A stretch of 64,000 nt of DNA. Source: Alistipes sp. (GTDB lineage: Bacteria > Bacteroidota > Bacteroidia > Bacteroidales > Rikenellaceae). The stretch covers positions 51,977 through 115,976 of the forward strand of contig JAFXFM010000005.1 of NCBI GenBank assembly GCA_017520545.1, read 5' to 3'. The notes below the pieces were generated by a model, which ran no database searches, had not been told where the DNA came from, and saw only the letters and a list, made by a program, of their open reading frames with translations. Shown piece after piece: positions 16,604-32,200 of the stretch (positions are counted from its first letter, which is position 1; each line of letters begins with the position of its first letter). Both the position numbers and the translations under genes were made by a program.

Positions 16604-18313
16604 TTACCACGCAATGCTCTGCGAATACTCGTTTCCGAAGCGATCCACCACCGTAACAGTTCCCTTGCCTGACGATTTAGGCTCGTAGGCACGGAATATG
16701 GTGTGAATGTTATTGTCGGCAGGACCGTAATCATCAGAGTCCTTCAACTTGTAGCCTACGGTGCTATAATGACTCTTAATATCGTAGTCCGTCAAGCAGT
16801 AAGCGTCCTTGAAGCCCACCTTTGTCATCGTTGTACCGTTATACTTCGGCTTCTCCCACATATCGTCCCAGAGGAAGACATTTACATAGATATAATTCTT
16901 GTCGGCAGCCTTATCCTCCACCAAGTTGGTGTAGGTCTTGTGGTACTCGCCGGGCTTATAGACCTTCATCTGGTAACGTTCCGTTAGGGTAGAGCCATCG
17001 CTACGCATCTTCGCCACACCAGCCTCATCGTAGTCCCAATCGCGGTACTTGTACTCCATAAGTGGCGAGTTGCCCGTAGGTTGTGTGCGCTGATAGATTG
17101 TCGGCTTGAAATACCACGATATGTTGTCGCCATCAACCTCCACTACGGTATATCCGCGCGGTGTGCCATTTGCCCAATACTCGTTGGTCCAGAGTTCGCC
17201 CGTAGAGCGTGCTACGGTGTGTACTTCGAGGTTTCGGAGGTTCGACGACTCGGGATATACATAGTTGAATGTCGTGTGCGAGTGTCCTGCCCAAGCGTGT
17301 ACCTTCGCAAACTTCGAGAAGAGGTTTGCATAATCGCTGCGGTGTCCCTGTGCAGCGTTGGAACGCTCACCCATCGTATCGCCCATAAACATCGGCGAGT
17401 GCGCTGCCACCATAATCGTGGTAGAGCGATCGACATAAGCGAGGTCGTTCTGCAACCACTGCCAAACTTCGTCTGTCAAGCCTTGGTCATACTCGCGCAA
17501 CGAGCCGTCGCTTGCTCGAAGTTTCATAATGAGGTTGTCCAACACTACATAGTGCTGCTTGCCGATATTAAACGAGTAGTAGGTTGGTCCTAACCACTGC
17601 TCATAAACACGGCGACCATCTGTGTCGGTCTTTGCCGAAGGGTCGTTGTCGTGGTTGCCGAGGATGTTGAACATTGGGAAACCAAGCGATTTCAGACCCG
17701 CAACATACTCGTCGTAGAGGTTCATATTCTCGTGAACCAGGTCGCCGAGCATCATACCATAGACGTTGCGGTCGGTGATTGTTGCTGCCTTCTCCTTCAT
17801 ATCGAGGTAGAAGTCGTCGCAGATGTCGAGCGAGTGGTAGGCTATGTTGTCGTAGCCAGCAGTGCGTGCTCGTGGTTGAGGGTCAGCACCCACAATAAGG
17901 GTGTAACGCTCCGGATTATTTGTTATGGGATAGAACTCGAAGGTGTGTTGTACCAACCCCTTTGCTCTATCCTCGTCAGTTACGCGGTAATAGAATATCG
18001 GCAGACCATTCGCATCCACCGGAGCAGAATATCCCGAAGGGATACTTGCCGTAATGAATTTCGTGCGCGAGAGGTCACTGTCAATCTCGAAGTAACCCTT
18101 TTCGTCGGTCTGCACGCACAGCAAACCGTCCGATATTACCACTCCGGCAAGTTTATCGTTGCCACCGCCATAGACAATACCTTTGACGGTTATCTTGCCC
18201 GTAGGCTTGTAACCGCCACTGTTGCTGTTGTTATTATTGTTGTCATCACCATTGTCGGGTGTGCACGCCAACGCAAATATGAGAGTTAAAATTGGAATGA
18301 AAAGTCGTTTCAT
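16604..18313 (-). CDS. Lipoprotein calcineurin-like phosphoesterase
   Basis: 569 residues with a lipoprotein signal (FALACTPD), an Asn-rich linker, a MetallophosN-type domain (~45-120), a metallophosphoesterase core with GADPQPR, LGDLVHEN, GNHDND, AHSPMF and AGHSHT, and a MetallophosC-type domain. Metal ligands look intact. It is a paralogue of the 819-residue neighbour. The location is probably outer membrane, facing outward if exported with the SusCD lipoproteins. The substrate is not readable; the SusC/SusD context suggests a phosphorylated glycan, glycerophosphate polymer or phospholipid head group. Confidence 0.85.
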   Translation of the reverse strand: MKRLFIPILTLIFALACTPDNGDDNNNNNSNSGGYKPTGKITVKGIVYGGGNDKLAGVVISDGLLCVQTDEKGYFEIDSDLSRTKFITASIPSGYSAPVDANGLPIFYYRVTDEDRAKGLVQHTFEFYPITNNPERYTLIVGADPQPRARTAGYDNIAYHSLDICDDFYLDMKEKAATITDRNVYGMMLGDLVHENMNLYDEYVAGLKSLGFPMFNILGNHDNDPSAKTDTDGRRVYEQWLGPTYYSFNIGKQHYVVLDNLIMKLRASDGSLREYDQGLTDEVWQWLQNDLAYVDRSTTIMVAAHSPMFMGDTMGERSNAAQGHRSDYANLFSKFAKVHAWAGHSHTTFNYVYPESSNLRNLEVHTVARSTGELWTNEYWANGTPRGYTVVEVDGDNISWYFKPTIYQRTQPTGNSPLMEYKYRDWDYDEAGVAKMRSDGSTLTERYQMKVYKPGEYHKTYTNLVEDKAADKNYIYVNVFLWDDMWEKPKYNGTTMTKVGFKDAYCLTDYDIKSHYSTVGYKLKDSDDYGPADNNIHTIFRAYEPKSSGKGTVTVVDRFGNEYSQSIAW

Positions 18314-18532: not shown

Positions 18533-21500
18533 TTACTCGGTATAGAGTGTAGTACCTGTTACGGTTGGAGTACCAGCAACAAGGTTGTCACCACCACCAC
18601 CAGGACCACACATTAGACTTGAAAGAGTAATTTCAGCACCCTGGAAAGTTCCGCTAATCTTATTGTCTGTAATAGAAGTTTCACTATCTGCAAGACCAAC
18701 CATAACAGCCGCTGATACAACTGCCGTATTGAAGCCAAGAGCTACATTAGCAAGAGTGTTATTGTGGATAGTCGAAGCTACCGAGTAGGCAACAAAACCA
18801 CCTGCGGTACCGCCACCGCCGTTACCAAGTGTCGAATCAGACAATGTACAACCCTCCAAATTCGAGTTGATTAACTGACAAACCAAACCGCCGATATCTG
18901 TGGTGTTCTGCTGCCACAATGTAACAATACAGTCACAATTCTTTATATCTGCATACTTTGCAAGGCCAACCAAGCAACCAACTTCACCGCGGTTAGAGCT
19001 ATGAGCATAATCCGCCTTATAAGAGTAAGTTGCATTGCCTACCTTATTGTTGAAAGTACACTGCTCAATTACAATCTTTGAATCCGCTGTACCCTCTACA
19101 AAGCCTGCGATACCTCCTGCAAACGAACAACCGCCAGATGTACGAATAACTCGTGCATTATCTCCAGAGCCTACGCGATTGTTATTATCGGTCTTATTTC
19201 CAATTACACCTGTAACGGTACAGTTAGAAACTTTTGAAGCGCTATTTGTAAGTGCACCTACAATGCCACCCATTGCCAAAGAACGACCATTCGAACGAGT
19301 TTTTGTATATCCTGCAACCACGCCACTATTAGTAGAGTCTGTTATAGTAACCGAACAAACAGCGCTACCAGCATCAGTAGCAGAACAATCGCTACCTACG
19401 ATACCTCCAACACATACATTATAAGAACGATAACCGGTAGAGTTGTTGTCGTAGAAATAAACGACACCCTCATTGGTTGCACTATCAATAGTAGTATTTT
19501 TAGTTGAAAGACCTAAAATACCTCCAACATATACATTCTTATAAGCAAGTGCTCCGTTCGTAAATTGAACCTGTCCCAAATTCTTAACTTCGGTCAAACT
19601 TGCAGAAGATACACCTGCAATACCACCAAGAGCATTGTATTTAATATTAGAACCTTGGTTAGATATCACAGTACCATAGTTTACGATCTGGTTGTTACCG
19701 TCGATCTCGTTAGTAGCCTCGAGTTTACCTACGATACCACCCATCGAGAGTGTTGCAGTTGCATTATTGTTCATACGCGAGCAAGCAACCTCTGCCTTGT
19801 TCGAAAGCTGCGAAAGGGCTGCCGAGTACGAAACACCGATTACACCGCCGAGATTGTTGTTACGAGCCTGATAGTAGCCAAGGCTTGTTGTTCCGGCTGT
19901 GACTGATGCACCCTCGTTTGCGCAGTTGCTGATTGTTGCAGTAGCCTGAACATTACCTACAACACCACCGATATACTGCTGCAAGCACGAACTGCGGTTG
20001 GTGAGGTTTGCGTACATTGTACAGTTCGATATGCTACCATCGGTATAACCTACGATACCGCCACCATACAAGTAACGCGAAACATCAGATGAGCCATTGC
20101 GGCTACCATTGTATTGGTTGAATACAACGGCTGCTTTGTTTGTACAGTCCGAAACCGAACCGCCCTCGGCGACCTCTCCTATGATACCACCTACGCTCTG
20201 GGTACGGTAGTGGTTCTCTACTTGGCTATTAGCTTCACCATAAACGAAGTTACCATAGAAGAAGGTCTTGGTCTCGTCGGTGAGGTGACAGTTGGTAACA
20301 GTACCAGCCGACAAACCAACAATACCACCATACTTTACATAAGCGTCGCTTGCATTCTCAGAGCCATCTGCAATGTAGGTAGAACCTGCGCTGTGCGATA
20401 CGTTACCCGAAACATTAACACCCTTAACAACGCCTGCTGCGTTCGAAACACGACCAACAGCACCACCATAGTAAGAGGTCTTACCATTGGTTACGAGAGT
20501 GTTTGTGATAGTTACATCGCCCGAAACAGTACAGTTCTCAACACTACCTACAACTACACGACCTACGAGAGCTCCTACGTGTGGCTCCGCTTCGCCCCAG
20601 TTGCCCGAAGCGGTGAGGTTTGCGTTTACGTGGCAGTTGATGAGCGAACCACGGTGGTAGCCTACGAAAGCAGCATAGTACTGCTCCTCGTCTGCATAGT
20701 TTGCAGTCAAAGTACACGAAGCGTCGATAGTCAAGTTCTCGATGATACCATCAATGTTTGTGTAAGCGAACAATGGACGAGTCGAGTTCCAATTCTTGAT
20801 AGCGAAACCTGCACCATTGAAGTAGCCGTTGAAGTAGTTGTCGTCCTCGCCCTCAACAACAGCCTTAACACCGATTGGAGTCCAAGCAGCGTTTGTTGCA
20901 TCGTCGAATACGATGTCCTGAGTGAGGTTTACATTGAGTGGCTGCATATCTGCATAGTCGCCAGCGTTGTATGCGTTAGCAAAAGCGATCAACTCCTCTG
21001 CGCTCGAAATCTCAACACCTACGAGTGTGCCGGTAGGAACGAACTCTACAACAGGCATAGCCTTAATCTCGCCAGCCTCGATGGTCATAGCCTTCGATGC
21101 GATATCCATATAGTGGCCAGCCTTGTCAATCAAGCGAACGGTGATACCCTGTGGGTACTCGCGAGCTGGAACTACGATGAATACATCGTCAGTCTCCTCT
21201 GCCGAGAGATCCTTGATAGCACTTGTTGTAACAACCTTGTCAGCCTCGGCTGTCGAAGTTGCGGTGAGGGTTACTGCCTCGTAGTCGATAGCGAAGTCGC
21301 CTGACATCTGCTCGCCAGTGTTGCCCTTTGTCTCAACCTTGTTCAATGGGTGGGCACTGTGTGGGTTCTCTGCTGACAACTTAACCTGCAAGCGGATAAC
21401 ACCTGCGAGGTGGTGCATCTGAACGGTACCCTCTGCTGCTTGGTACGATGCCATAGGAGCTGTATCCTTCGCGAAGTTGTTGGTTGCACCCGCCTGAACA

Positions 21501-21847
21501 GCAGGAAGAGTGATTGTCTGTGGGTCCTTATACATCGAAGCAGGGTAGAGTACCGAGTATGGGTGAGTCAAATCTGGACCAAACTCGAATACTGCCGAGG
21601 TCTTATCCTCGTTGAGAGTGATAGCGGTAGATGCATTGCCATTGATAGCAATCTGGTCGCCATTGTGCCAATATACCTTGCGTGCACCATCCACCAAATC
21701 TCCAAGATAGGTCTTGGTATCTGCAATACCTACGGTTACGGTTGTGCCTCCTTCAATCGGAGCGACAACATCATTTGTCAAATCGTTTGTACAGCCTGCA
21801 AACATTACTACTGCGAGGGCTGCAACTGTTCTAAAAATCTTTTTCAT
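18533..21847 (-). CDS. Large lipoprotein: fimbrillin-like domain plus GLUG-type repeats
   Basis: 1104 residues with a lipoprotein signal (VVMFAGCTND). Residues ~35-270 have the fimbrillin-like pattern (TKTYLGDLVDGARKVYWHNG, then MHHLAGVIRLQ). A short linker leads into a long series of GLUG-like repeats of the form xVGGIxG...I-x-NCxNxGxV (~330-1060), expected to form a right-handed beta-helix. No catalytic motif is visible. It is likely a surface-exposed binding or adhesin component. Its promoter-proximal neighbours are a BACON/GLUG lipoprotein and SusCD. Long reverse-strand open frames in this region are shadows of its repeats. Confidence 0.85.
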   Translation of the reverse strand: MKKIFRTVAALAVVMFAGCTNDLTNDVVAPIEGGTTVTVGIADTKTYLGDLVDGARKVYWHNGDQIAINGNASTAITLNEDKTSAVFEFGPDLTHPYSVLYPASMYKDPQTITLPAVQAGATNNFAKDTAPMASYQAAEGTVQMHHLAGVIRLQVKLSAENPHSAHPLNKVETKGNTGEQMSGDFAIDYEAVTLTATSTAEADKVVTTSAIKDLSAEETDDVFIVVPAREYPQGITVRLIDKAGHYMDIASKAMTIEAGEIKAMPVVEFVPTGTLVGVEISSAEELIAFANAYNAGDYADMQPLNVNLTQDIVFDDATNAAWTPIGVKAVVEGEDDNYFNGYFNGAGFAIKNWNSTRPLFAYTNIDGIIENLTIDASCTLTANYADEEQYYAAFVGYHRGSLINCHVNANLTASGNWGEAEPHVGALVGRVVVGSVENCTVSGDVTITNTLVTNGKTSYYGGAVGRVSNAAGVVKGVNVSGNVSHSAGSTYIADGSENASDAYVKYGGIVGLSAGTVTNCHLTDETKTFFYGNFVYGEANSQVENHYRTQSVGGIIGEVAEGGSVSDCTNKAAVVFNQYNGSRNGSSDVSRYLYGGGIVGYTDGSISNCTMYANLTNRSSCLQQYIGGVVGNVQATATISNCANEGASVTAGTTSLGYYQARNNNLGGVIGVSYSAALSQLSNKAEVACSRMNNNATATLSMGGIVGKLEATNEIDGNNQIVNYGTVISNQGSNIKYNALGGIAGVSSASLTEVKNLGQVQFTNGALAYKNVYVGGILGLSTKNTTIDSATNEGVVYFYDNNSTGYRSYNVCVGGIVGSDCSATDAGSAVCSVTITDSTNSGVVAGYTKTRSNGRSLAMGGIVGALTNSASKVSNCTVTGVIGNKTDNNNRVGSGDNARVIRTSGGCSFAGGIAGFVEGTADSKIVIEQCTFNNKVGNATYSYKADYAHSSNRGEVGCLVGLAKYADIKNCDCIVTLWQQNTTDIGGLVCQLINSNLEGCTLSDSTLGNGGGGTAGGFVAYSVASTIHNNTLANVALGFNTAVVSAAVMVGLADSETSITDNKISGTFQGAEITLSSLMCGPGGGGDNLVAGTPTVTGTTLYTE

Positions 21848-22171: not shown

Positions 22172-25100
22172 CTATTTACCACTCCAATACTCTACACTCT
22201 CTACTACCGCAGCACACTTGTCGCCATTATGATGGTCTATACCTGTTGCGTAAGCAAGAACATTGTTGGCAGAGATTGTAACACCATCTACGACACCTCC
22301 GTAGCGACAACCCTTAACCTTAGTCTGTGCATCGCCGTAGCCAACAATACCGCCATAGTATTCATTTGTGGATATATCTTTGTTGAAGTTGTATGTGATA
22401 GTGCCAAAGTATGAACAACCCTCGATAAGGGTAGTGCCACTCGAAATAGCAACGATACCTGCTGCGCGTGCAGTACAAGAACCTCCGGTACCGCAATTGA
22501 TGTCTACGATTGCTGTACAGTTCTTGACATTTGTCGAGGTGTATGCTCCTGCGATGATACCTGCCGCGTGTGGGTTGATGTCCTGCTCGAAAGCACCTAC
22601 GGTGTAGTTACACTCCTCGATGGTAGCATTCTGTGCCCAACCTACAATACCTGCAACATAGCCACGCAATGCTCGCAACTTGCCCTGATTTGTACAGTTG
22701 CGTACGGTCAATGTCTCCGAAATGGTATTAGCCGAAAGACCGAAACTACCAACGATACCACCTGTACAGTTTGGCTTGGCTGTAGCATCGTACGATGCGT
22801 TGTTGTAGCTGCCGTTATAAAAGTGTGCGTTGCTGTTGCAGTTCTCAATCAAAGCGTTACCGCCCAAAATACGACCTGCAATACCTCCGATTGCAACACT
22901 GCTATACTGCACACGGTTGCTCGAAGATGCTCTATCCCAAGTGATTGCTGCTGCATTGTTCGAGTTCTTGATGGTTACAGCGTCGTTACACTCACCAACA
23001 ATACCTCCGAGAGAGTGATTTACCTGCTTCGATGTCTTGGTATTCCAACGGTGAGCGGTCGAAATCGAACCCGCAACGGTTGCACCGGTGATGTTTACGA
23101 TACCATTGACCTGTGCGACGATACCACCAGCCTTGGTAGGGCAGTAGTTGTCCACATCAACGAACTTCGAGCCGATAGTACCCTCCCACATAGGAGCGTT
23201 AAAGGTTATATCGCCATCGATCAAACCAAAGTGACCACCCATACAGAGAATTGCATTTGTGAGGTCCGAAACGCCGTCGGTTACATTGATTGTACCTGCT
23301 GCGTTGCTACCGTCCTTTGCGTAGTCGATTGCGAACTCTGTAACCTGAACATAGCCTGCAAGACCGCCGAAGTATGCATAGCGTGCCTCGCCCTCCGACA
23401 AGATGTCCGAAGCATTGCCCTGCAAGTTAGCTTCGAACTTGGTGTTTTCTGCAGGCAAAAGTGCTGTAACACCACCAACATAGAGCTTATCTACATTCGA
23501 CTTCAAAGCGATGTCGCCCTCGTTGGTGTTGCCGTAAATCTCACCACTACCAAACGCTACAACACCTGCTACCTGAGCCTCGTAGGTGCCAGCTGAGCCC
23601 CTCTGAGCATTGAATGTGATAGCGGCTGCGTTCTGGCTATTGCGAACGATTGCTCCATTTGCGTTGTAGGCTACAACACCCGCAGTATACGAATTCAATG
23701 CCTGTACACCAGCCACGATAGGGCCATTGTTGAAGCTGTCCTCTACGATGCCATCGTTGTGAGCTACCAAGCCTCCAACCTTGCACAAAGTCTCATTGCC
23801 ACTTACGGTGCAAGAGCTTGGTACGCTGATTGCTCCGATGTTCGAGCAGAGTGTGAGCTTCGAGGTTGCATCAACCTTTGCTACCATACCTGCAACAAAG
23901 ATAGACTTGTTGTCGGCACTCGCAATGGCATCAATCGAAACCTTTGCGTTGTTGGTACAATACTCCACTACGGTGTTGTTTCTAATCTCGGCTGCCAATG
24001 ATGCGAGATAGATGTCGTCAGCGAACTGACCTACACGCTCAAACACCGAAGTCTCGTCAATTACGATGTTCTTCAATGTAGCGTTATCCACAACGCCAAA
24101 CAATGGCTGTGAAGACTTAAGGTTGATAATCTTGTGGTTTTTACCGTTGAACTCGCCTGTCCAAGGATGCTCTGCGGTACCGATTGATACCCACTCCTCG
24201 ATCTCGGTCATATCAATATCGCCCACTATTGTAGGAACGCCATCAACATACCACTGCGATACATCACCACCAGAGTTCCAAGTCTCGGCAAAGAGCTTCA
24301 GACCCGGACCCGATACCAAGCCCTCCATTGCGTAGAACTTCTGCTTGATAACCGGAAGTTTGATATTTGCTGCACCCGAGAGCATAGTCAACTCGAGTTC
24401 GGTTGTACGAATGTGATTTGCATCGCTTGGGTTGCCCGCAAATTGGAGCATATAGGATACGCTGTTGTCTGCATTCTCAACCACGGTGTAGGTAACCCAC
24501 GAAGGCATTACAATCTCCTTAACGGTCTGCTTTGGAACGCGGAGTTCGAGTGGAGCGGGATCCTGCGCCTCGAGCAAGAGGTTGCCATCTGCGTCGTACT
24601 CCATCTCGATGCCATACTGCCATACATTGATAGTACCATCTACACGCTCAACGCCATCCTTCTTGAGTTTAATCTCGCCATAGCGCGATGCGTCGCTGTT
24701 CTCTGTCCAAGCAACTGTAACCTCGGTAACGGTGAAGCCTTCGGCATCGGTCGAAACTGCGCCTTTGGTTGCTGTAAGCCAAGGGTCGCACTCCAACGAC
24801 CAAGCCTCGCCTGCGTCGCGGGTTTTAACCTTTGTTGCAAAGCTATTTGCACCCTTTGTCGAGGCGGCATAAATCTGATCGAGTACGAATACATTGCCAT
24901 TGTGCGAAACAACGAGTTTCTCCACCTCGTATGCACCAGCCTTGAATGTGATGGTTGCATCCTCACGAGCATCGAAAGTGTCGTTAGCATTGATAACCAT
25001 AGTAAATGAGCCTGTACCACGATGTGGCTCCTCTACGATTTGGCACCAATCCTGATTGGCTTCAACATTCCAATATATGCCCTCGTTGTTCAGCGCAACA

Positions 25101-25288
25101 TCGACCGTGATAGTGTGGCTTACCGATGCGAGGTCGAGCGAACGAACCTCCTCGCCACCTACGCTGAATGTAACCTCGATATCGCCAACTTCAACCATCT
25201 CCGGGCTCTTGTCGGTTACATCCTCGGTGGTACAGCCCACGAACAAGGCTGCAACCACCATTACTATATATATAAAGTATCGTTTCAT
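22172..25288 (-). CDS. Large lipoprotein: BACON-type domain(s) plus GLUG-type repeats
   Basis: 1038 residues with a lipoprotein signal (ALFVGCTTED). The N-terminal ~300 residues contain a BACON-type beta domain (WNVEANQDWCQIVEE...GSFTMVI...DAREDATITFKAGAYEVEKLVVSHNG) and a second, related segment. GLUG-like repeats follow (~360-1000), ending with CxYGGVVDG-type units. BACON domains are thought to bind carbohydrate or mucin. It directly follows susD (20-base gap), the usual place for the extra surface glycan-binding lipoprotein of a PUL, so a ligand-capture role is inferred. Confidence 0.85.
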   Translation of the reverse strand: MKRYFIYIVMVVAALFVGCTTEDVTDKSPEMVEVGDIEVTFSVGGEEVRSLDLASVSHTITVDVALNNEGIYWNVEANQDWCQIVEEPHRGTGSFTMVINANDTFDAREDATITFKAGAYEVEKLVVSHNGNVFVLDQIYAASTKGANSFATKVKTRDAGEAWSLECDPWLTATKGAVSTDAEGFTVTEVTVAWTENSDASRYGEIKLKKDGVERVDGTINVWQYGIEMEYDADGNLLLEAQDPAPLELRVPKQTVKEIVMPSWVTYTVVENADNSVSYMLQFAGNPSDANHIRTTELELTMLSGAANIKLPVIKQKFYAMEGLVSGPGLKLFAETWNSGGDVSQWYVDGVPTIVGDIDMTEIEEWVSIGTAEHPWTGEFNGKNHKIINLKSSQPLFGVVDNATLKNIVIDETSVFERVGQFADDIYLASLAAEIRNNTVVEYCTNNAKVSIDAIASADNKSIFVAGMVAKVDATSKLTLCSNIGAISVPSSCTVSGNETLCKVGGLVAHNDGIVEDSFNNGPIVAGVQALNSYTAGVVAYNANGAIVRNSQNAAAITFNAQRGSAGTYEAQVAGVVAFGSGEIYGNTNEGDIALKSNVDKLYVGGVTALLPAENTKFEANLQGNASDILSEGEARYAYFGGLAGYVQVTEFAIDYAKDGSNAAGTINVTDGVSDLTNAILCMGGHFGLIDGDITFNAPMWEGTIGSKFVDVDNYCPTKAGGIVAQVNGIVNITGATVAGSISTAHRWNTKTSKQVNHSLGGIVGECNDAVTIKNSNNAAAITWDRASSSNRVQYSSVAIGGIAGRILGGNALIENCNSNAHFYNGSYNNASYDATAKPNCTGGIVGSFGLSANTISETLTVRNCTNQGKLRALRGYVAGIVGWAQNATIEECNYTVGAFEQDINPHAAGIIAGAYTSTNVKNCTAIVDINCGTGGSCTARAAGIVAISSGTTLIEGCSYFGTITYNFNKDISTNEYYGGIVGYGDAQTKVKGCRYGGVVDGVTISANNVLAYATGIDHHNGDKCAAVVESVEYWSGK

Positions 25289-25308: not shown

Positions 25309-27033
25309 TTATTTGCGACCTAAACTGCGTATAGCCTTACTCTCGGCAGTCGATGACCACCATATCTCGGTCAGCATATTGTTGTCGCCATTAAGCCAGC
25401 CATTTACGGCATTGGTGTAGTGCTCCGCGTTCTGGAATGCCTCGGTCGAAGGATAACGCAAACGAGTAGGGAGAGTGCCGTTATTCATCGCAGCAGGACC
25501 ATTTGTACGCATTACAGGGTAACCTGTACGGCGGTAGTCTGCCCACGCTTCAACGCCTACCCAAAACATCGCTACGTACTTCTGACGCATAACGGTTTCG
25601 AGAGCCTTGTTATAGTCGAACTCGTCATCGAGGTAGTCCATCCAGTTGATAACCTCGACCGAAGAGGCTGTGTAGTAGTCGGTAGCCCTCTCCCAACCAA
25701 CCTGCCACTGCAAGATAGATTGAAGGTTAGCGTCGAGGTACAGATCCTTGTATGCCTTCTGCGACATTGGGATCCAAGTACGAACTCCCGCCTCGGCAAA
25801 GATGAAGAGTATCTCGTCGTAGTTGAGAATGGCGTATGCAGGGTCCATCTTCAAGTCGCCAATGTGATCGCCCGTGTAGCCACCCTTCGGATAGCGACCA
25901 ATTAGTGAGTTGCCCAACGAACTAACCTTCTCGTCGAAGTAGTCGCTCAAGTACTCGCGAGTCTCCTGCGAAGGTGCTCCCATAGCCTTTGTAAAGTAGC
26001 GGAAGTAGCGTGGGTCCCACTTGTATGTAGGATTTACCTCGTTTTCCTTACCACTCTTGTAGTTGATAAGCATCTTATCTACCAAAGTCGAGCAAGCCGC
26101 CTCGCCATTCCAGTTACCACTTGTGGTAGCATAGAACGATGTATAGAGCGCCGAATCCTTCGAGCTGAACTGCACACGTGCGCTGTCGTCGATGCCACGC
26201 ATAACAGGGTAGTCGCCCTCGCCCGAGAGGAAACTGTCGTAAATCTCGTTGATTTTAGCCACAACGTTGATATCGCCAAACTCATCACCCAATGATATGA
26301 TGCCCTGCGACTCCTCGATAGCCTTGTTCGAAACACGCATCAACAGACGGAGGTAGAGCGAGTTTCCGAAGCGACGCCACTTCTCCACATCGCCATTATA
26401 CATAAAGTCGCAAATAGGGTTGAAGTTTGCGCTTGTGAGAGTTCCCGCTTCAACCTTCTCCTGCGCCTTTGCAAAGCAGGCATTTGCCTCCTCCAACGAA
26501 CGCAACAGGTCGATATAAATCGACTTTTGATCGTCGTATGGTACGGTATAATCAAACTCGTTACCCTGCAAAGCGATGATTCCCGCCTTCGAGTATGGAA
26601 CATTTCCGTAGGTGTCGGTTAAAAGGTGTCCGATCCACGAGCGAAGTACCAACGCTACGCCGACCATTGCGGGGTTGCCCTTGTCGCTTTCGCACTCCTT
26701 GCGTGCTGTTGCAAGCATATATTGGGCGTTACCGAATTGGTTATACAAAGTCCACATCTGGTTGATGAAGTTCTCCGAAATAACGTAGTTGTAAACCAAC
26801 TGTGCCGAGTTCTCGAAGTTGGTGTTGATGGTGTATTGCATCAAATCGCCAAATATGTAGTAGTCGCAATATGCCAACTGCTTTCGTGTGTTGTAAAGTA
26901 TAGGCTGCACGAACGACTCCGAGTTGGTTTCATAAACCACATACGGGTTCTTGTTCATATCGTCGAAATGGGTACAGCCCACCGACGCAAACACCGCAGC
27001 CAACGCTATAATATATTTAGTGTATTTCTTCAT
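25309..27033 (-). CDS. susD: SusD/RagB-family outer-membrane lipoprotein
   Basis: Partner of the SusC channel that captures ligand at the cell surface. 574 residues with a lipoprotein signal (ASVGCTHFDDMNKNP); the C-terminal part has the family-like RQKYVAMFWVGVEAWADYRRTGYP block. GGAGG at 27046-27050 is only 2 bases from the ATG at 27039 but 8 bases from the ATG at 27033, so the second start is preferred. It lies 13 bases after susC and is surely co-transcribed with it. The symbol denotes family, not starch specificity. Confidence 0.9.
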   Translation of the reverse strand: MKKYTKYIIALAAVFASVGCTHFDDMNKNPYVVYETNSESFVQPILYNTRKQLAYCDYYIFGDLMQYTINTNFENSAQLVYNYVISENFINQMWTLYNQFGNAQYMLATARKECESDKGNPAMVGVALVLRSWIGHLLTDTYGNVPYSKAGIIALQGNEFDYTVPYDDQKSIYIDLLRSLEEANACFAKAQEKVEAGTLTSANFNPICDFMYNGDVEKWRRFGNSLYLRLLMRVSNKAIEESQGIISLGDEFGDINVVAKINEIYDSFLSGEGDYPVMRGIDDSARVQFSSKDSALYTSFYATTSGNWNGEAACSTLVDKMLINYKSGKENEVNPTYKWDPRYFRYFTKAMGAPSQETREYLSDYFDEKVSSLGNSLIGRYPKGGYTGDHIGDLKMDPAYAILNYDEILFIFAEAGVRTWIPMSQKAYKDLYLDANLQSILQWQVGWERATDYYTASSVEVINWMDYLDDEFDYNKALETVMRQKYVAMFWVGVEAWADYRRTGYPVMRTNGPAAMNNGTLPTRLRYPSTEAFQNAEHYTNAVNGWLNGDNNMLTEIWWSSTAESKAIRSLGRK

Positions 27034-27052
27034 AATCATATCCTCCCAAGCA

Positions 27053-30000
27053 TTAGAATGTTATCGAAATGCTACCACCGTACGATGCTGTGCCCGGCAT
27101 CTGCAAGAGGTCGAAGCCCGGCGAGAGTGCCGAACCACGCATTGTTACAGCCTCAGGGTCGAAGCCGGGGAACTTGCTCCAACAGTAGAGGTTATTGCCG
27201 AATACCGATATAGACAAGCCCTGAATAACCTTGGTCTTGGCGAGTAACTTCTTCGGGAATGAGTACTCCAAGCGTACCTCGCGCAACTTCAAGAACGAAG
27301 TCTCGACGAAGTTAGCCTCGCAACACTCACGTGCGTAGAGTGCCTGATAGTATGCCTGGATTGAGGTTGAGGTGTGCTCGTAGTCGCAAATTTTGTAGTT
27401 GCCGTCTGCCATCTGCATAACGCCCTTTGGTACGAAACCGCCCTCACGACCTTCGAGAGTTGCGATACCTTTACCACGATAGTTCAATGCCCAGTTGGTC
27501 TCTGACCAAACCCTTCCACCGAACTGACCGTCGAACTTAACGCTCGCCTTCAAGCCCTTCCAGCTGAACGAAGTGCCGAAGCCGCCACGCCATTTTGGCA
27601 TACACTCTCCGACATACTCGATCTCCTCGTTGATGATTGGCGAACCATTCATATCGTGTACCACCTGTCCGCTAACATCAACCATCTTACCCGATGCATC
27701 AATCACGTACGAACCCTCCGGAGCACGCTTGTAGCGACGACCATACATCGAAGTAAGCGAGCTGCCCTCGTAGGCGTACATATAGGCGTATGAACCACGA
27801 CCTGCAACCTGCCAGAAGTCGATGCCATCGCCAAGTTCGAGAATTTTATTGCGGTTGATTGACCAGTTAGCCGAGATATTCCAACGGATATCCTTCGTGC
27901 GGATGATTGTTCCAACAGCCTGAATTTCGAAACCGTGGTTGCGGATAGAACCGGCATTGGTGAATACGCTTGTCATACCTGCCGAAGCCGATACAGGCAT
28001 CGAAGCCAAGGCGTTGGTAGTCTTGCTGTTGTAGTATGCCATATCGATGTTCAAGCGGTTGCGGAACATACGCAAGTCGATACCAACCTCCCACGACGAT
28101 ACCTTTTCCGGCAACAACAGACCATTAACCTTCGAGGTTGGTGTTGTAACGTTACCCGGGAAGGCGGTGCTGTTGAGATACTCCTCGATGCGATAAGGTT
28201 TTGTGTCGTGTCCGACCTGCGCCCACGATGCACGCACCTTCAACAAGTTTACGAGTCCGTTGGTGCGACCAAAGTCTGCCAACTCGTTGATTACAACACT
28301 ACCCGAAACAGAAGGGTAGAAGTAGGAACGGTTGCTTGCCGGGAGTGTACTCGACCAGTCGTTACGACCTGTTACGTCGAGGAAGAGAGCATTGCGCCAC
28401 GAGAACTGCACCAAGCCATAGAGCGAGTTGGTCTGACGACGCTCGGCGTAGTTATTGGTCTTAACGAGCGATGCCGAGTTGGCAAGGGTATAAACGCTCG
28501 GATTTTTGAGGTTGTCTGCCCACTGCTGATGACGCTCATACTTGCGGTTGATGATGCTACCGCCAAAGTTTGCAGTGAGGTTGATGTCGTGCTTAAAATC
28601 GTGTGTGTAACGGAAGAGAAACTCGCCCGAGTACTGCATCGAACGAATCATCTGCTCACGATAGAAGCCGTTAGGGTCGCTCTGTGTCGAGGTCGCGTAT
28701 CGCTGCGTGCGGAAATCCCACTGCGAATCCAAACCTGCACGAACCATCAAGGTTAAGCCCTTGTAGATGTCGAAGTTTAACTTTACGTTTCCGTAGATAC
28801 GGTCGCGATCTTGTGTGTTGATACTCTCGTTTGCCACGAAATAGGCGTTATTTTTGCCACCCGTGAGCGAGGTGTCTTGCTGAACACCCTCCTGACCATC
28901 TAACCAGTAGTGCTTTGCCCAATCCATATCGATATTTGGGGCGTAGCACCACAAACTATACATAATACCTGCGCCTGCACTATATCCCGATGATACCGGT
29001 ATGTTATCGCGCTGATTGCGACGATAGTTGAGCGAAATTTCCGATGTGAACCACTTGGCAATCTCATTGCGAGTACGCAATGCAACGTGCTGCATATTAC
29101 TTGGCGAGTTTGGGATAATGCCCTCCGAATGGGAGTCGCGCACCGATACACGAATCGAGTTGCGCTTGTTGATACGTCCCGACACCGAAATGGAGTTGGT
29201 CCAAGTATGACCAGTCTTGAAGAAGTCCTTAAACCAGTCGCCGTGGCTGATGAATGGGGTAGCCTCACGACGGAAATCACCAAACTGGTCTATGCTGCCG
29301 CCAATGCCTGCACTCTCGTCGTAGTACTGATAGTAGAGCGTTCCATCCATTCGAGGACCCCACGAGAGCAGACCTGTTTGGTTAGAGTAGCTTGGTTCTG
29401 GGTGATAGCCTGAACCTTTGCCGGTGTCGGTACTGCGCACGAAGTAATAGTAGTCGTCGCGAGTTCCCTGACCATACTCATACTGCAAGTCGGGCGAAGT
29501 GTTTACCGTTTCGAAAGTGAGATTTGTCGAATAGGTTACGCTAATCTTCGATGCCAACTTGTCTGCCGACTTGGTGGTGATGATAATCGCACCATTTGCT
29601 GCTGCTGAGCCGTAGAGTGCCGTTGCAGCAGGTCCCTTCAATACGGTTACATTCTCGATATCCTCAGGGTTAATATCGCCCGTGCCATCGCCATAGTCAA
29701 TAGCATTGAGCGAGCCCTCGCCACCTGCATCCGACGTTGTCGAGTGGTTATACATAGGCACGCCATCCACCACGAAGAGTGCAGTGTTGTTGGCAAAGTC
29801 CACCGACGACTCACCACGGAGCGTTACACGAGTGGTACCACCACCTCCCGTGTTCGATTGCTGGATGTTCAAGCCTGCCACCTGACCGGATAAGCCCGAT
29901 AGCCAGTTCGAAGAGTTTGTTGCCGACGCCAATACATCGCCACCAACCTTCTGCGCAGCATAACCGAGTGACTTCTCGTCACGCTTGATTCCAAGTGCGG

Positions 30001-30392
30001 TTACGATAACCTGCTCCACAGCCTGCGCCTCCTCAACCATCGAAATGTCGATAGTGGTGCGCGAGCCTACCTTCACAGACTCTGTCTTGTAACCAATAAA
30101 ACTGAATTGAAGTTCTTGAACCGGTGTTGCCTTAATCTCGTAATTACCGTTGATGTCGGTAACAACACCTTGGAGTGTTGAGGCGATGATTACGCCCACT
30201 CCTGCCATTGGCTTGCCATTTTGGTCGAGAACCTTACCTCGCACTATGTGCGGTTTGGCAGCCTCCGGACTCTGCGATGATTTAAATTCCCCCCCCCCTA
30301 GAATTTTGAGCGTATATCATTGATATACTGCTCGTTAGGGTGAGAATTGCGACCGCAAGAGTCTTGAAAAATCTCTGTGTAGAAATTCTCAT
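27053..30392 (-). CDS. susC: SusC/RagA-family TonB-linked outer-membrane channel, out of frame at a poly-G tract (apparent phase OFF)
   Basis: The long open frame (GTG at 30244 to 27053) encodes a carboxypeptidase-regulatory-like domain (VRGKVLDQNGKPMAG...), a plug (IVTALGIKRDEKSLGYA...) and a ~800-residue beta-barrel, but lacks a signal peptide. A good one starts at the ATG at 30392: MRISTQRFFKTLAVAILTLT followed by ...SMIYAQNS, in a different frame. The two frames meet at ten consecutive G residues (plus-strand C run 30289-30298). With ten G, translation from 30392 ends at TAA just after the tract; with nine or twelve the frame continues EFKSSQSPEAAKPHIVRGKV into the channel. As sequenced the protein cannot be exported. 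Either a slipped-strand switch caught OFF or a homopolymer sequencing error explains this. Confidence 0.88.
30289..30298 (-). repeat. Homopolymer tract (G10 on the coding strand) in the susC 5' coding region
   Basis: Ten consecutive C on the plus strand, the longest G/C homopolymer I noticed in the window. It sits immediately after the signal-peptide codons (…AQNSR) and before the first SusC domain. The length sets the reading frame: 9 or 12 in frame, 10 (as here) and 11 out of frame. Confidence 0.9.
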
Positions 30393-30683
30393 AAAAGTTA
30401 AGGTTTAATTAGGTTATTATTTATTTTGGGTTATTTATGTCGTAAATATGCGTATTACAATTGCGAATTTAATATATATTTTTGAAATAGCAAATAAAAA
30501 TGGAATATTTTTCATAAAAAAGACGAAAACCTTTTATTGATAATTGATAATTATAGGCTATTACGGGTATGGCGCATCCTCTCACAATCTCTAACAACCT
30601 CTAATTCTGTTGTGTCGTGAGCCTACGGAGTGCGTATCAAAATGGAAAAGAATGACAACTAATGGCAATTGCTCGTTGCATTC

Positions 30684-30748
30684 GCTGAACCGATGCCAAA
30701 CCGAGAGCATAGGCTACTTGCAGACTTTGCTGAGGAGCGAAGGAGGAA
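30684..30748 (+). repeat. Dispersed 65-bp intergenic repeat, copy B
   Basis: Ungapped match at 52 of 65 positions to the minus strand of 18396-18460. Same end motif gcgaaggaggaa. Function unknown. Confidence 0.7.
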
Positions 30749-30959
30749 GACCGAAGGTCAATGGCAAATGCGCCTGTTATTAAGCACTCCAATAAGAGTT
30801 AGCAGTTATTCAATGCCGAAAATGAGTAGGCACGACGGATACGCAAGGGCGTTGCACGCAATTCATTGCGTGGTGGAGTTTGAGGTTACAGGCATCGTGC
30901 TTGCACGAAATGGCTGATAATCGCAAACTACACACTGAAAGCAACGCCCATAATTCACA

Positions 30960-30990
30960 AAAAAAGACAGCCTAAAAAGCTGTCTTTTTT
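30960..30990 (-). terminator. Ancestral terminator of tRNA-Lys, now separated from it by the island
   Basis: 12-bp perfect arms (aaaaaagacagc 30960-30971 and complement 30979-30990) with T-rich 3' ends. It abuts the 18-bp tRNA 3'-end copy at 30992. Before insertion it would have followed the tRNA directly, on the same (minus) strand. Confidence 0.8.
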
Positions 30991-30991
30991 C

Positions 30992-31009
30992 CGTGAATCC
31001 GCCGGGGCT
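30992..31009 (-). repeat. attL: 18-bp copy of the tRNA-Lys 3' end
   Basis: cgtgaatccgccggggct is identical to 60341-60358, which covers the 3' acceptor and part of the T arm of tRNA-Lys. The match stops exactly at both edges (31010 t versus 60359 c; 30991 c versus 60340 t). This is the left boundary of the genomic island. Confidence 0.88.
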
Positions 31010-31080
31010 TTAATGCTTTTCCGTTACTCTCAATTACTCAAAGAGTTGTGTGCGTTTGTCAATTTACACTCACGCAACAC

Positions 31081-31308
31081 TCACTGTCCTTGCACACTTG
31101 CCTGATACTCCTCGTACAAAGCAACTGGGCCGAGGTGCCATAACTTTGTGGACTCGTCTGCCAATCGTGTGTAAAACGAAGAGTTATAGAGTATCTTCAT
31201 CGCCTCTACTATGGTAATACCTTTGTCTTCTGCCAGCATATTCGCCAACCAGCTTATTTTTGATGGCAGGAGCAGATATAAATTTTGTTGCGTAATATTC
31301 AGATTCAT
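31081..31308 (-). CDS. Small helical protein of the DUF3990/DUF3791 module
   Basis: 75 residues with a conserved-looking core: LPSKISWLANMLAED...EAMKILYNSSFYTRLADE...KLWHLGPVALYEE. Its ATG overlaps the stop of the DUF3990-like gene (TAATG), so the two are translationally coupled. Proteins of this type usually accompany DUF3990/DUF3791 pairs; I cannot assign an activity. It is the first gene inside the left att site. Confidence 0.6.
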   Translation of the reverse strand: MNLNITQQNLYLLLPSKISWLANMLAEDKGITIVEAMKILYNSSFYTRLADESTKLWHLGPVALYEEYQASVQGQ

Positions 31309-31790
31309 TACTCTACCTCCTTTGCTTCTATAAAAGTTAATGCTTGCAAGGCCTTTTCGGTATGGAACAGATATTGGTCGACAAGTTTATATGCTTTCAA
31401 CTCCGCAATCAAAGCCTGCTTATTTATCAGACCACCCTCATATAACGCAAATGCTGCATAGACTCTATCATTAGCCACAGGGCCATATACAATGTCAAAC
31501 TCGTGGACATATCCTCTTTGAGTACGATTCTTCATTACGAAGTCCACCCACTCTTCGGTCGGTTGCTCGAATATAAGCGTCTTCAAACTCTCCAATGCAG
31601 CCTCGTTAAGTTCATAAACGCAAACATAACCACGAGAAGTTCTCTTCTCATTCATTCTTCGCCTTACCCAAGCTTCGGCTTGCTCATACGAGGTCGTAGT
31701 ATAGAAACCCTGACCATAATCGAGAGTACGGTTTGACTCTCTGATTTCAGGGGATTCTACTTTTTCGATACTTCCGTGGTATATTTTCAT
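31308..31790 (-). CDS. DUF3990-like protein, possible ADP-ribosyltransferase fold
   Basis: 160 residues starting MKIYHGS and continuing LDYGQGFYTTTSYEQAEAWVRRR, an arrangement (H near the N terminus, then DFGxGFYxT...QAxxWA) typical of DUF3990 and reminiscent of the NAD-binding half of ADP-ribosyltransferases. It lies between a DUF3791-like gene and a coupled small helical gene, with gaps of 5 and -1 bases. Such tight triplets behave in genomes like toxin-antitoxin or modification modules; that role is inference. Placement next to attL would suit a stabilisation function for the island. Confidence 0.65.
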   Translation of the reverse strand: MKIYHGSIEKVESPEIRESNRTLDYGQGFYTTTSYEQAEAWVRRRMNEKRTSRGYVCVYELNEAALESLKTLIFEQPTEEWVDFVMKNRTQRGYVHEFDIVYGPVANDRVYAAFALYEGGLINKQALIAELKAYKLVDQYLFHTEKALQALTFIEAKEVE

Positions 31791-31795
31791 AACTC

Positions 31796-32011
31796 CTATG
31801 CTTTGCGTTCCTTTATAAACTCGTCAATATCCTCGATAATCCATTGACGGCTCTGTGTATGCAGAATCTCAAAATGCTCCATAAGATAATCAAGAACTCC
31901 ATATGCCGAGAATAGAGCCATTACCTCATCCTGGTTAAGCTTCTTCTCATTCATGTACTGCTCAATGCAAAATGAGAGAAAATAGGAGATATCTTGATTT
32001 TTCTTGTTCAT
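31796..32011 (-). CDS. DUF3791-like small protein
   Basis: 71 residues: FLSFCIEQYMNEKKL, then FSAYGVLDYLMEHFEILHT and a C-terminal IIEDIDEFIKER. This pattern matches DUF3791, an all-helical family that typically precedes DUF3990 genes. It is the first gene of the three-gene unit and probably co-transcribed with the two downstream genes. A possible partner or antitoxin role is inferred only from context. Confidence 0.7.
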   Translation of the reverse strand: MNKKNQDISYFLSFCIEQYMNEKKLNQDEVMALFSAYGVLDYLMEHFEILHTQSRQWIIEDIDEFIKERKA

Positions 32012-32073
32012 ATAGCATAAATTTATCTGCTAATATCGCAAATAACATTCCGATATTACAGCTCTATTTTTCA

Positions 32074-32081
32074 CAAAGATA
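32074..32081 (-). promoter_or_regulatory. -7 element for the DUF3791/DUF3990 unit
   Basis: On the minus strand TATCTTTG, a TAnnTTTG match 62 bases upstream of the 32011 start. No clear -33 partner. Confidence 0.4.
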
Positions 32082-32200
32082 AATCAAAAAATCGAAAAAA
32101 CATAATCTTGGGCCGTTTCTTAAACTCTCTTGAACTTTGTATTTTGCGATTACACGACTCTCACGGAGATTAATTAAGAAAAATGAGCTAGCATTTTCTC

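What the first reader, a model, noticed from the sequence alone, without database searches (positions are those of the whole stretch)
30244..30392. Poly-G tract switches the SusC channel of this surface locus on and off
Seen: a complete signal peptide (ATG 30392) and the full SusC body (open from 30244) are in frames offset by one base, joined at G10. With G9 or G12 the frames fuse into a normal SusC precursor; with G10 translation stops at TAA right after the tract. Known: G/C homopolymers over about eight are slippage hot spots used for phase variation in other bacteria, and Bacteroidales usually vary SusC expression by DNA inversion. Inference: slipped-strand phase variation of an outer-membrane channel, with possible polar effects on SusD and the lipoproteins downstream.
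Basis: partly seen in the sequence, partly recalled or inferred. Interest (0 to 1): 0.85.

Follow-up and report, generated by a model that had tools for sequence, protein, structure and literature searches.

The report
Poly-G on/off switch in SusC gene
A run of ten Gs just after the signal peptide puts a gut bacterium's SusC outer-membrane channel gene out of frame, and related species carry similar runs near the start of the same gene, some in frame and some out, which points to a reversible on/off switch, although switching itself was not observed.

Summary
A G10 run (30289-30298, minus strand) separates the signal-peptide frame (ATG 30392, stop TAA 30284-30282) from an intact 1063-codon SusC body. 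It is the window's only G/C run of 7 or more.

Comparison favours a slipped-strand contingency locus over a dead gene or an assembly slip. Among 15 SusC genes (13 genomes) at 57% identity or more, 9 carry a run of 8-10 G or C between start and body, at different positions: 5 in frame, 3 out of frame, 1 undetermined. Bodies stay intact (dN/dS about 0.1 in five genes). GGG is 2.1% of Gly codons here. In 64 SusC genes, bodies hold 2 such runs in about 188 kb, both within 200 nt of the body start.

The genome has a separate length class at G9 (7 G8, 33 G9, 3 G10, 1 G11). A 400 kb sample of a single-contig relative shows the same mode. C. jejuni slippage rates also give a mode at 9.

Not shown: length variation within a strain, switching, or effects on SusD. 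Most of the genome's tracts are intergenic or in short frames and unexplained. The mechanism is known elsewhere; nine searches of open-access papers showed me none on SusC or Alistipes.

The parts
30289..30298 (-). G10 homopolymer tract, the proposed switch
   Evidence: ten G on the minus strand; only G/C run of 7 or more in the window
30300..30392 (-). start codon, signal peptide and first residues of SusC (MRISTQRFFKTLAVAILTLTSSISMIYAQNS), upstream of the tract
   Evidence: MRIST/MGIST N-termini in six relatives
30282..30392 (-). 36-codon reading frame made by the G10 allele, ending at TAA 30284-30282
27053..30244 (-). SusC body (1063 codons; CarbopepD_reg_2 and TonB plug domains), frame open upstream to 30316
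   Evidence: TIGR04056 643.7 bits, cut-off 368.25
25309..27039 (-). SusD-like lipoprotein gene, 13 nt downstream of SusC, intact
   Evidence: SusD-like_2 2.9e-58; next to SusC in 6 of 6 named loci from 5 genomes
22172..25288 (-). BACON-domain protein with a lipoprotein-like N-terminus, same strand
   Evidence: PF13004 2e-9; found in the same order in 6 of 6 named loci
18533..21847 (-). GLUG-repeat protein with a lipoprotein-like N-terminus, same strand
   Evidence: PF07581 3.2e-22; N-terminal part found after the BACON gene in 6 of 6 named loci, which end within it
16604..18313 (-). calcineurin-like phosphoesterase, possible last gene of the locus
   Evidence: no match in the named loci, which end before its expected place, so not tested

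Best explanation
The tract is a slipped-strand contingency locus. Replication slippage adds or removes single Gs. At lengths in one residue class modulo 3 the signal peptide is joined to the SusC body and the channel is made and exported; at other lengths translation stops soon after the tract and no exported SusC is made. The assembled genome caught an OFF allele (G10). Shown here: the two frames, the tract, its recurrence near the start of related genes in both frame states, the intact body, and the genome-wide G9 length mode. Inferred: slippage as the cause, reversibility, loss of the channel in OFF cells, and reduced expression of SusD and the lipoproteins by polarity. The likely benefit (escape from a phage, antibody or toxic substrate that uses this channel) is inference only.
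For: Runs of 8-10 G or C lie between start and body in 9 of 15 homologues at 57% identity or more, and in 3 of 17 at 41-44%. By eye the positions differ: inside the signal peptide (G137, G190), before its hydrophobic core (G134, G181), after it (window, G072, G093), after an STN-like domain (G047, G156; Pfam STN on G156's named copy 25.4 bits, below the cut-off of 28.4), in the linker as poly-C (G069, G102). Of the 9 close ones 5 are in frame (G137, G093, G047, G156, G069), 3 out of frame (window G10, G072 G9, G102 C8), 1 cut by a contig end (G085). Six of 32 other SusC genes (own genome and six of the genus) also have coding N-terminal runs, all exactly 9 and in frame. SusC bodies: 2 runs in about 188 kb, at body nt 123 and 188. 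GGG is 98 of 4584 Gly codons in long open frames; relatives G072b and G139 encode Glu-Gly-Gly-Gly without a run. Body dN/dS is 0.08-0.15 in 10 pairs of 5 genes, two of them out of frame. In six named loci (9-15 kb, 5 genomes) the only runs of 8 or more are four, all before the SusC body. Genome run lengths: 7 G8, 33 G9, 3 G10, 1 G11; C. jejuni slippage rates (PMC8224891 Table 2) give a stationary mode at 9.
Against: No length variation was seen within a strain or species; only one genome per species is held. 29 of the genome's 37 tracts of 9 or more are intergenic or overlap only mechanical frames under 145 codons, so a tract alone does not mark a switch, and a tolerant N-terminal linker could collect them passively. 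MutS1 and MutL are present, so there is no mismatch-repair loss to explain instability. The window is part of a 24-contig assembly without reads, so G10 itself may be a consensus error. The G9 peak (75% of runs of 8-11) is sharper than C. jejuni rates predict (47%). The out-of-frame G072 allele has an ATG in the body frame 69 nt before the body, so a product without signal peptide could be made there.
Confidence: 0.77

Rival explanations
1. Assembly or sequencing slip: the true tract is in frame, the gene is simply ON, and nothing switches.
For: The window comes from a 24-contig assembly and homopolymers are where indel errors fall.
Against: Out-of-frame alleles also occur in G072 and in G102, whose SusC lies on a 3.79 Mb contig. 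The presence of a tract is borne out by recurrence in relatives. The G9 mode also appears in a 400 kb sample of G177, a single-contig genome.
Confidence: 0.1
2. Passive tolerance: G9 runs form all over genomes of this genus and persist wherever they do no harm, including flexible N-terminal linkers of SusC. Out-of-frame alleles are transient, mildly harmful mutants and the switch has no selected role.
For: 29 of 37 tracts are intergenic or in short frames only; bodies are kept clean. Linkers encode Gly-Gly-Gly, which an unstructured stretch would tolerate.
Against: Runs recur at different positions of the same short region in related genes, including inside the signal peptide. Three of 8 readable close alleles are out of frame although bodies evolve under constraint. 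The window and G072 both keep a run at the same site at dS about 0.9.
Confidence: 0.25
3. Pseudogene: the gene has been lost by a frameshift at the tract.
For: One reading-frame break separates start and body.
Against: No stop in 1063 codons, SusD and downstream genes intact, body dN/dS 0.08-0.12 against four relatives, which reflects the long run more than the recent past.
Confidence: 0.04
4. Programmed frameshifting or transcriptional slippage on the G run lets a fraction of SusC be made from the out-of-frame gene at all times.
For: Long homopolymers can be slippery for ribosome or RNA polymerase (recalled, no test here).
Against: The offset is not conserved: 5 of 8 readable close homologues with a run are in frame, and 6 of 15 have no run.
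Confidence: 0.07
5. Promoter inversion controls this locus as in Bacteroides and the G run is incidental.
For: SusCD orthologues are among the genes switched by DNA inversion in Bacteroides (PMC12632263 passages). Two of five inverted pairs found in 30100-32200 bracket the promoter: 13 nt at 92%, 1007 nt apart, and 12 nt at 92%, 1770 nt apart.
Against: Both bracketing pairs have one arm inside the SusC body and are short; no chance level was computed. The others (24 nt at 79%, 17 nt at 82%, a perfect 12-nt terminator-like hairpin) lie upstream of the promoter region.
Confidence: 0.03

Closest known systems
Poly-G phase-variable haemoglobin receptors HmbR and HpuAB of Neisseria meningitidis (start of abstract in search listing, PMC3786947; that they are TonB-dependent is recalled)
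   Same: Outer-membrane receptor switched ON and OFF by length change of a poly-G run inside the reading frame.
   Different: Not SusC/RagA family, no SusD partner, another phylum (recalled); there the switching is reported, here it is inferred.
Poly-G/poly-C contingency loci of Campylobacter jejuni (passages of PMC8224891 and PMC4965091)
   Same: Tens of G/C tracts per genome, single-base slippage, insertion bias at G8-G9 and deletion bias at G10-G11; the tabulated rates give a mode at 9.
   Different: There 23 of 29 tracts lie in the main part of reading frames and 3 are intergenic; here 29 of 37 are intergenic or in short frames, and the SusC runs sit near the start. C. jejuni lengths run from G7 to G13.
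SusC/SusD genes switched by site-specific DNA inversion in Bacteroides fragilis (Nakayama-Imaohji 2009, seen only as a citation)
   Same: Phase variation of a SusC/SusD outer-membrane pair in Bacteroidales.
   Different: Site-specific invertase there; a homopolymer in the reading frame here.
Suggested replication slippage in a run of Cs in an acetyltransferase gene of Bacteroides fragilis 638R (passage of PMC3090145)
   Same: A frameshift in a C run of a surface-polysaccharide gene of a Bacteroidales, offered there as a possible source of variation.
   Different: A run of 4 Cs with one added, one strain, a suggestion; not a SusC and not a long tract.

Membership tests
SusC/RagA TonB-dependent outer-membrane protein | score over the TIGR04056 cut-off | tested here: met
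   643.7 bits, cut-off 368.25
SusC/RagA TonB-dependent outer-membrane protein | N-terminal carboxypeptidase-like domain and plug | tested here: met
   PF13715 3.2e-16 and PF07715 5.4e-15
SusC/RagA TonB-dependent outer-membrane protein | adjacent SusD partner | tested here: met
   25309-27039, PF12771 2.9e-58; next to SusC in 6 of 6 named loci
SusC/RagA TonB-dependent outer-membrane protein | signal peptide joined in frame to the body | tested here: not met
   present but in another frame in this assembly; this is the proposed OFF state
Slipped-strand (simple-repeat) phase-variable gene | homopolymer of 7 or more inside the reading frame, near the 5' end | tested here: met
   G10 starting 94 nt downstream of the first base of the ATG
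Slipped-strand (simple-repeat) phase-variable gene | length change shifts translation between full product and early stop | tested here: met
   frames read on the sequence, and in-frame and out-of-frame homologues; no expression test
Slipped-strand (simple-repeat) phase-variable gene | length differs among isolates or cells of one strain | not testable with these tools
   one genome per species, no reads
Slipped-strand (simple-repeat) phase-variable gene | high-frequency reversible change of expression | not testable with these tools
   needs culture or single-colony sequencing
Invertible-promoter SusC locus | inverted repeats flanking the promoter | tested here: inconclusive
   five pairs of 12-24 nt; two short ones bracket the promoter 1.0 and 1.8 kb apart with an arm inside SusC; no chance level computed
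Programmed frameshift gene | frame offset conserved among orthologues | tested here: not met
   5 of 8 readable close homologues with a run are in frame

The most novel reading that the evidence does not exclude
This genus (Alistipes by the titles of named relatives) has a genus-wide slippage-based contingency system: G9-class tracts, tens in some genomes, held near an intrinsic equilibrium length of 9, which as three codons makes ON the default state. Those near the starts and in the leaders of SusC operons and surface lipoproteins act as switches, giving many combinations of surface transporters in an order where phase variation is ascribed to DNA inversion.
Probability: 0.45. Interest if true: 0.75.

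Novelty: new variant of a known kind. Interest (0 to 1): 0.6.

Why it matters
SusC channels are main nutrient gates and often phage receptors in gut Bacteroidales (recalled). Their phase variation, where I saw it described, is by DNA inversion. A homopolymer switch at the start of a SusC operon would add a second, recombinase-free way to vary the surface. It would be missed by tools that look for inversions, and could be annotated as a pseudogene or a start-less gene. It can be tested in existing metagenomes by counting tract lengths in single reads.

Tried and rejected
Viral-contig pattern search for other tract lengths at this site: 0 matches. Mismatch-repair loss as the source of instability: rejected, MutS1 and MutL are present in the own genome over their cut-offs. 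Promoter inversion: weak, inconclusive repeats.

Paper searches. Searches returned 0 papers. Searches (20 of 194 listed; 20 of 33; 17 of 17; 12 of 143; 8 of 8; 7 of 7) gave lists in which I saw no paper on homopolymer switching of SusC or in Alistipes; I saw titles and starts of abstracts. In the word-start searches 'susc' also matches words such as susceptible. One search was a search on Campylobacter only. Passages read: PMC12632263, PMC11868660, PMC12118408 (no mention of homopolymer or slipped), PMC8224891, PMC4965091, PMC3090145, PMC5306329 and PMC7366714, the last two irrelevant, and PMC3711429 (its one mention of Bacteroidetes was not among the passages shown). Only open-licence PubMed Central papers are held.

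Mistakes mended. One search read minus-strand loci in the wrong orientation; one search picked wrong strands for some loci; one search was one base off. In one search two rows (L140, L141) were misplaced at contig ends; their N-termini were read and have no run. L214 was left out because its row was not printed. L067, a distant Chitinophagaceae match, is in no count.

Rows not read: 15 of the 47 SusC places listed (one of them, G102:C5:1755531, has a run of 9 near its start and is not counted) and 6 of the 36 lipoprotein places listed. One search scored at most 4 candidates per genome.

Full report
OBSERVATION. On the minus strand ATG 30392 opens a signal-peptide frame that runs into ten Gs (30298-30289) and stops at TAA 30284-30282 after 36 codons. 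The SusC body lies in another frame, open from 30316 to 27053, with no ATG before its first domain. The body is a SusC/RagA protein (643.7 bits against a cut-off of 368.25) with CarbopepD_reg_2 and plug domains, followed 13 nt later by an intact SusD-like gene and two large genes with lipoprotein-like N-termini. The run is the only G or C run of 7 or more in the window.

GENOME CONTEXT. The window lies in a 1.93 Mb, 24-contig genome. The genome's G runs form a separate length class: 7 of exactly 8, 33 of 9, 3 of 10, 1 of 11, while 464 kb of it have 5 runs of 6 and none of 7. Markov models expect 0.2-2.1 runs of 9 per genome. The mode is not peculiar to fragmented assemblies: 400 kb of G177, a single-contig genome of the genus, have runs 7:3, 8:2, 9:13, 10:0, and 400 kb of G102 have 7:1, 8:2, 9:4, 10:1. 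All 81 genomes of the genus examined have at least one nine-G match, median 10.0 per Mb (a run longer than 9 counts more than once), against 1.17 per Mb in 98 other genomes of the order, 18 of which have none. Slippage rates tabulated for C. jejuni in PMC8224891 (passages) give a stationary length distribution with its mode at 9; the peak here is sharper (75% against 47% among lengths 8-11).

RELATIVES. A search of 180 genomes of the genus found this SusC at E 1e-200 or better in 36, with 47 places listed and at most 4 candidates scored per genome. I read the N-termini of 32. Among the 15 at 57% identity or more (13 genomes), 9 have a run of 8-10 between start and body; among the 17 at 41-44%, 3 do. 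The runs are not one inherited site: by eye they sit within or just before the signal-peptide core, just after it, after an STN-like domain (25.4 bits, below Pfam's 28.4), or in the linker as poly-C. Frame state in the 9 close ones: 5 in frame, 3 out of frame (window, G072, G102), 1 cut by a contig end. The window and G072 share the site and have opposite offsets modulo 3. Every in-frame run is exactly 9. In six named loci from five genomes, three of them from sheep or yak gut, the order SusC-SusD-BACON-GLUG is conserved. These loci of 9-15 kb hold four runs of 8 or more, all before the SusC body.

POSITION. Across 64 SusC genes (32 of this family, 4 others of the own genome, 28 top-scoring ones from six genomes of the genus) 18 have a coding N-terminal run (for G085 the start itself is not on the contig), one has a run only in its leader, and bodies hold 2 in about 188 kb, both within 200 nt of the body start. 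A uniform-position binomial gives 1.4e-12, but the genes are related and the region counted reaches 500 nt before the body, so this is indicative only. GGG is 98 of 4584 Gly codons in long open frames, and G072b and G139 encode Glu-Gly-Gly-Gly without a run, so the runs are not simply a way to write glycine. The bodies evolve under constraint (dN/dS 0.08-0.15 in 10 pairs of 5 genes).

OTHER GENES. In the own genome 5 of 37 runs of 9 or more lie in the first 110 nt of a gene on its coding strand: this SusC, two proteins (L017, L028/L094) related to the window's GLUG protein (28-29% identity, E 7e-22 and 2e-30), a small lipoprotein-like protein without a Pfam match (L073) and an acyltransferase-3 membrane protein (L023; PF01757 6.3e-14). 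The last four are G9 and in frame. One run lies mid-gene (L070), one inside a frame on the other strand (L013), one at a gene end (L077), and 29 are intergenic or overlap only frames under 145 codons (mechanical frames). In 30 of 36 listed relatives of the L094 protein, 3 have coding N-terminal runs and 8 have leader runs (the script's own count is 4 coding, because it took an upstream in-frame ATG of L230), with none in 93 kb of body.

MECHANISM. The best reading is a translational slipped-strand switch, with ON as the default because the usual length of 9 keeps frame in most of these genes, and OFF variants arising by single-base slips. The alternatives (assembly slip, passive accumulation in a tolerant linker, pseudogene decay, frameshifting, promoter inversion) are weighed in their sections. 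The strongest rival is passive accumulation, because most runs in the genome are not in genes. What would separate the two is tract-length polymorphism within a population, which could not be examined here.

KNOWN AND NEW. Poly-G switching of haemoglobin receptors is reported in Neisseria (listing) and poly-G contingency loci in Campylobacter; SusC/SusD phase variation in Bacteroides is by inversion; slippage has been suggested for a B. fragilis acetyltransferase gene. I saw no paper on homopolymer switching of SusC, or in Alistipes, in the nine searches, some of whose lists were capped and all of which cover open-licence papers only. I therefore rate it a new variant of a known kind.

Noticed in passing
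own genome, 29 of 37 G>=9 tracts (L001-L030, L068-L077, L085-L091): Most G9 tracts are intergenic or in short frames. Over all 37, T is common before the run (22 of 37 at -5 and at -4) and T then A after it (23 and 20 of 37; both together 16); several follow T runs directly (L002, L009, L020, L071). No role is known.
   Followed up: partly
L023:568-1539 (-): Acyltransferase-3 membrane protein with an in-frame G9 at residues 11-13, a class of gene often switched in other bacteria (recalled).
   Followed up: partly
L229, L230, L234, L235, L238, L241, L247, L248: Leader regions of genes of the L094 family carry G8-G11 runs upstream of the likely start codon, which could be a second, transcriptional kind of switch.
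   Followed up: no
L101, starting 85 nt upstream of the ATG: Another SusC gene of the same genome has a G9 in its leader.
   Followed up: no
L063:1-20: The contig holding the G085 SusC begins 10 nt before its G10 tract, perhaps because the tract varies in the sample.
   Followed up: no
G078:C2:769062-769166: A cluster of several long G runs within about 100 bases in a 6-contig genome of the genus.
   Followed up: no
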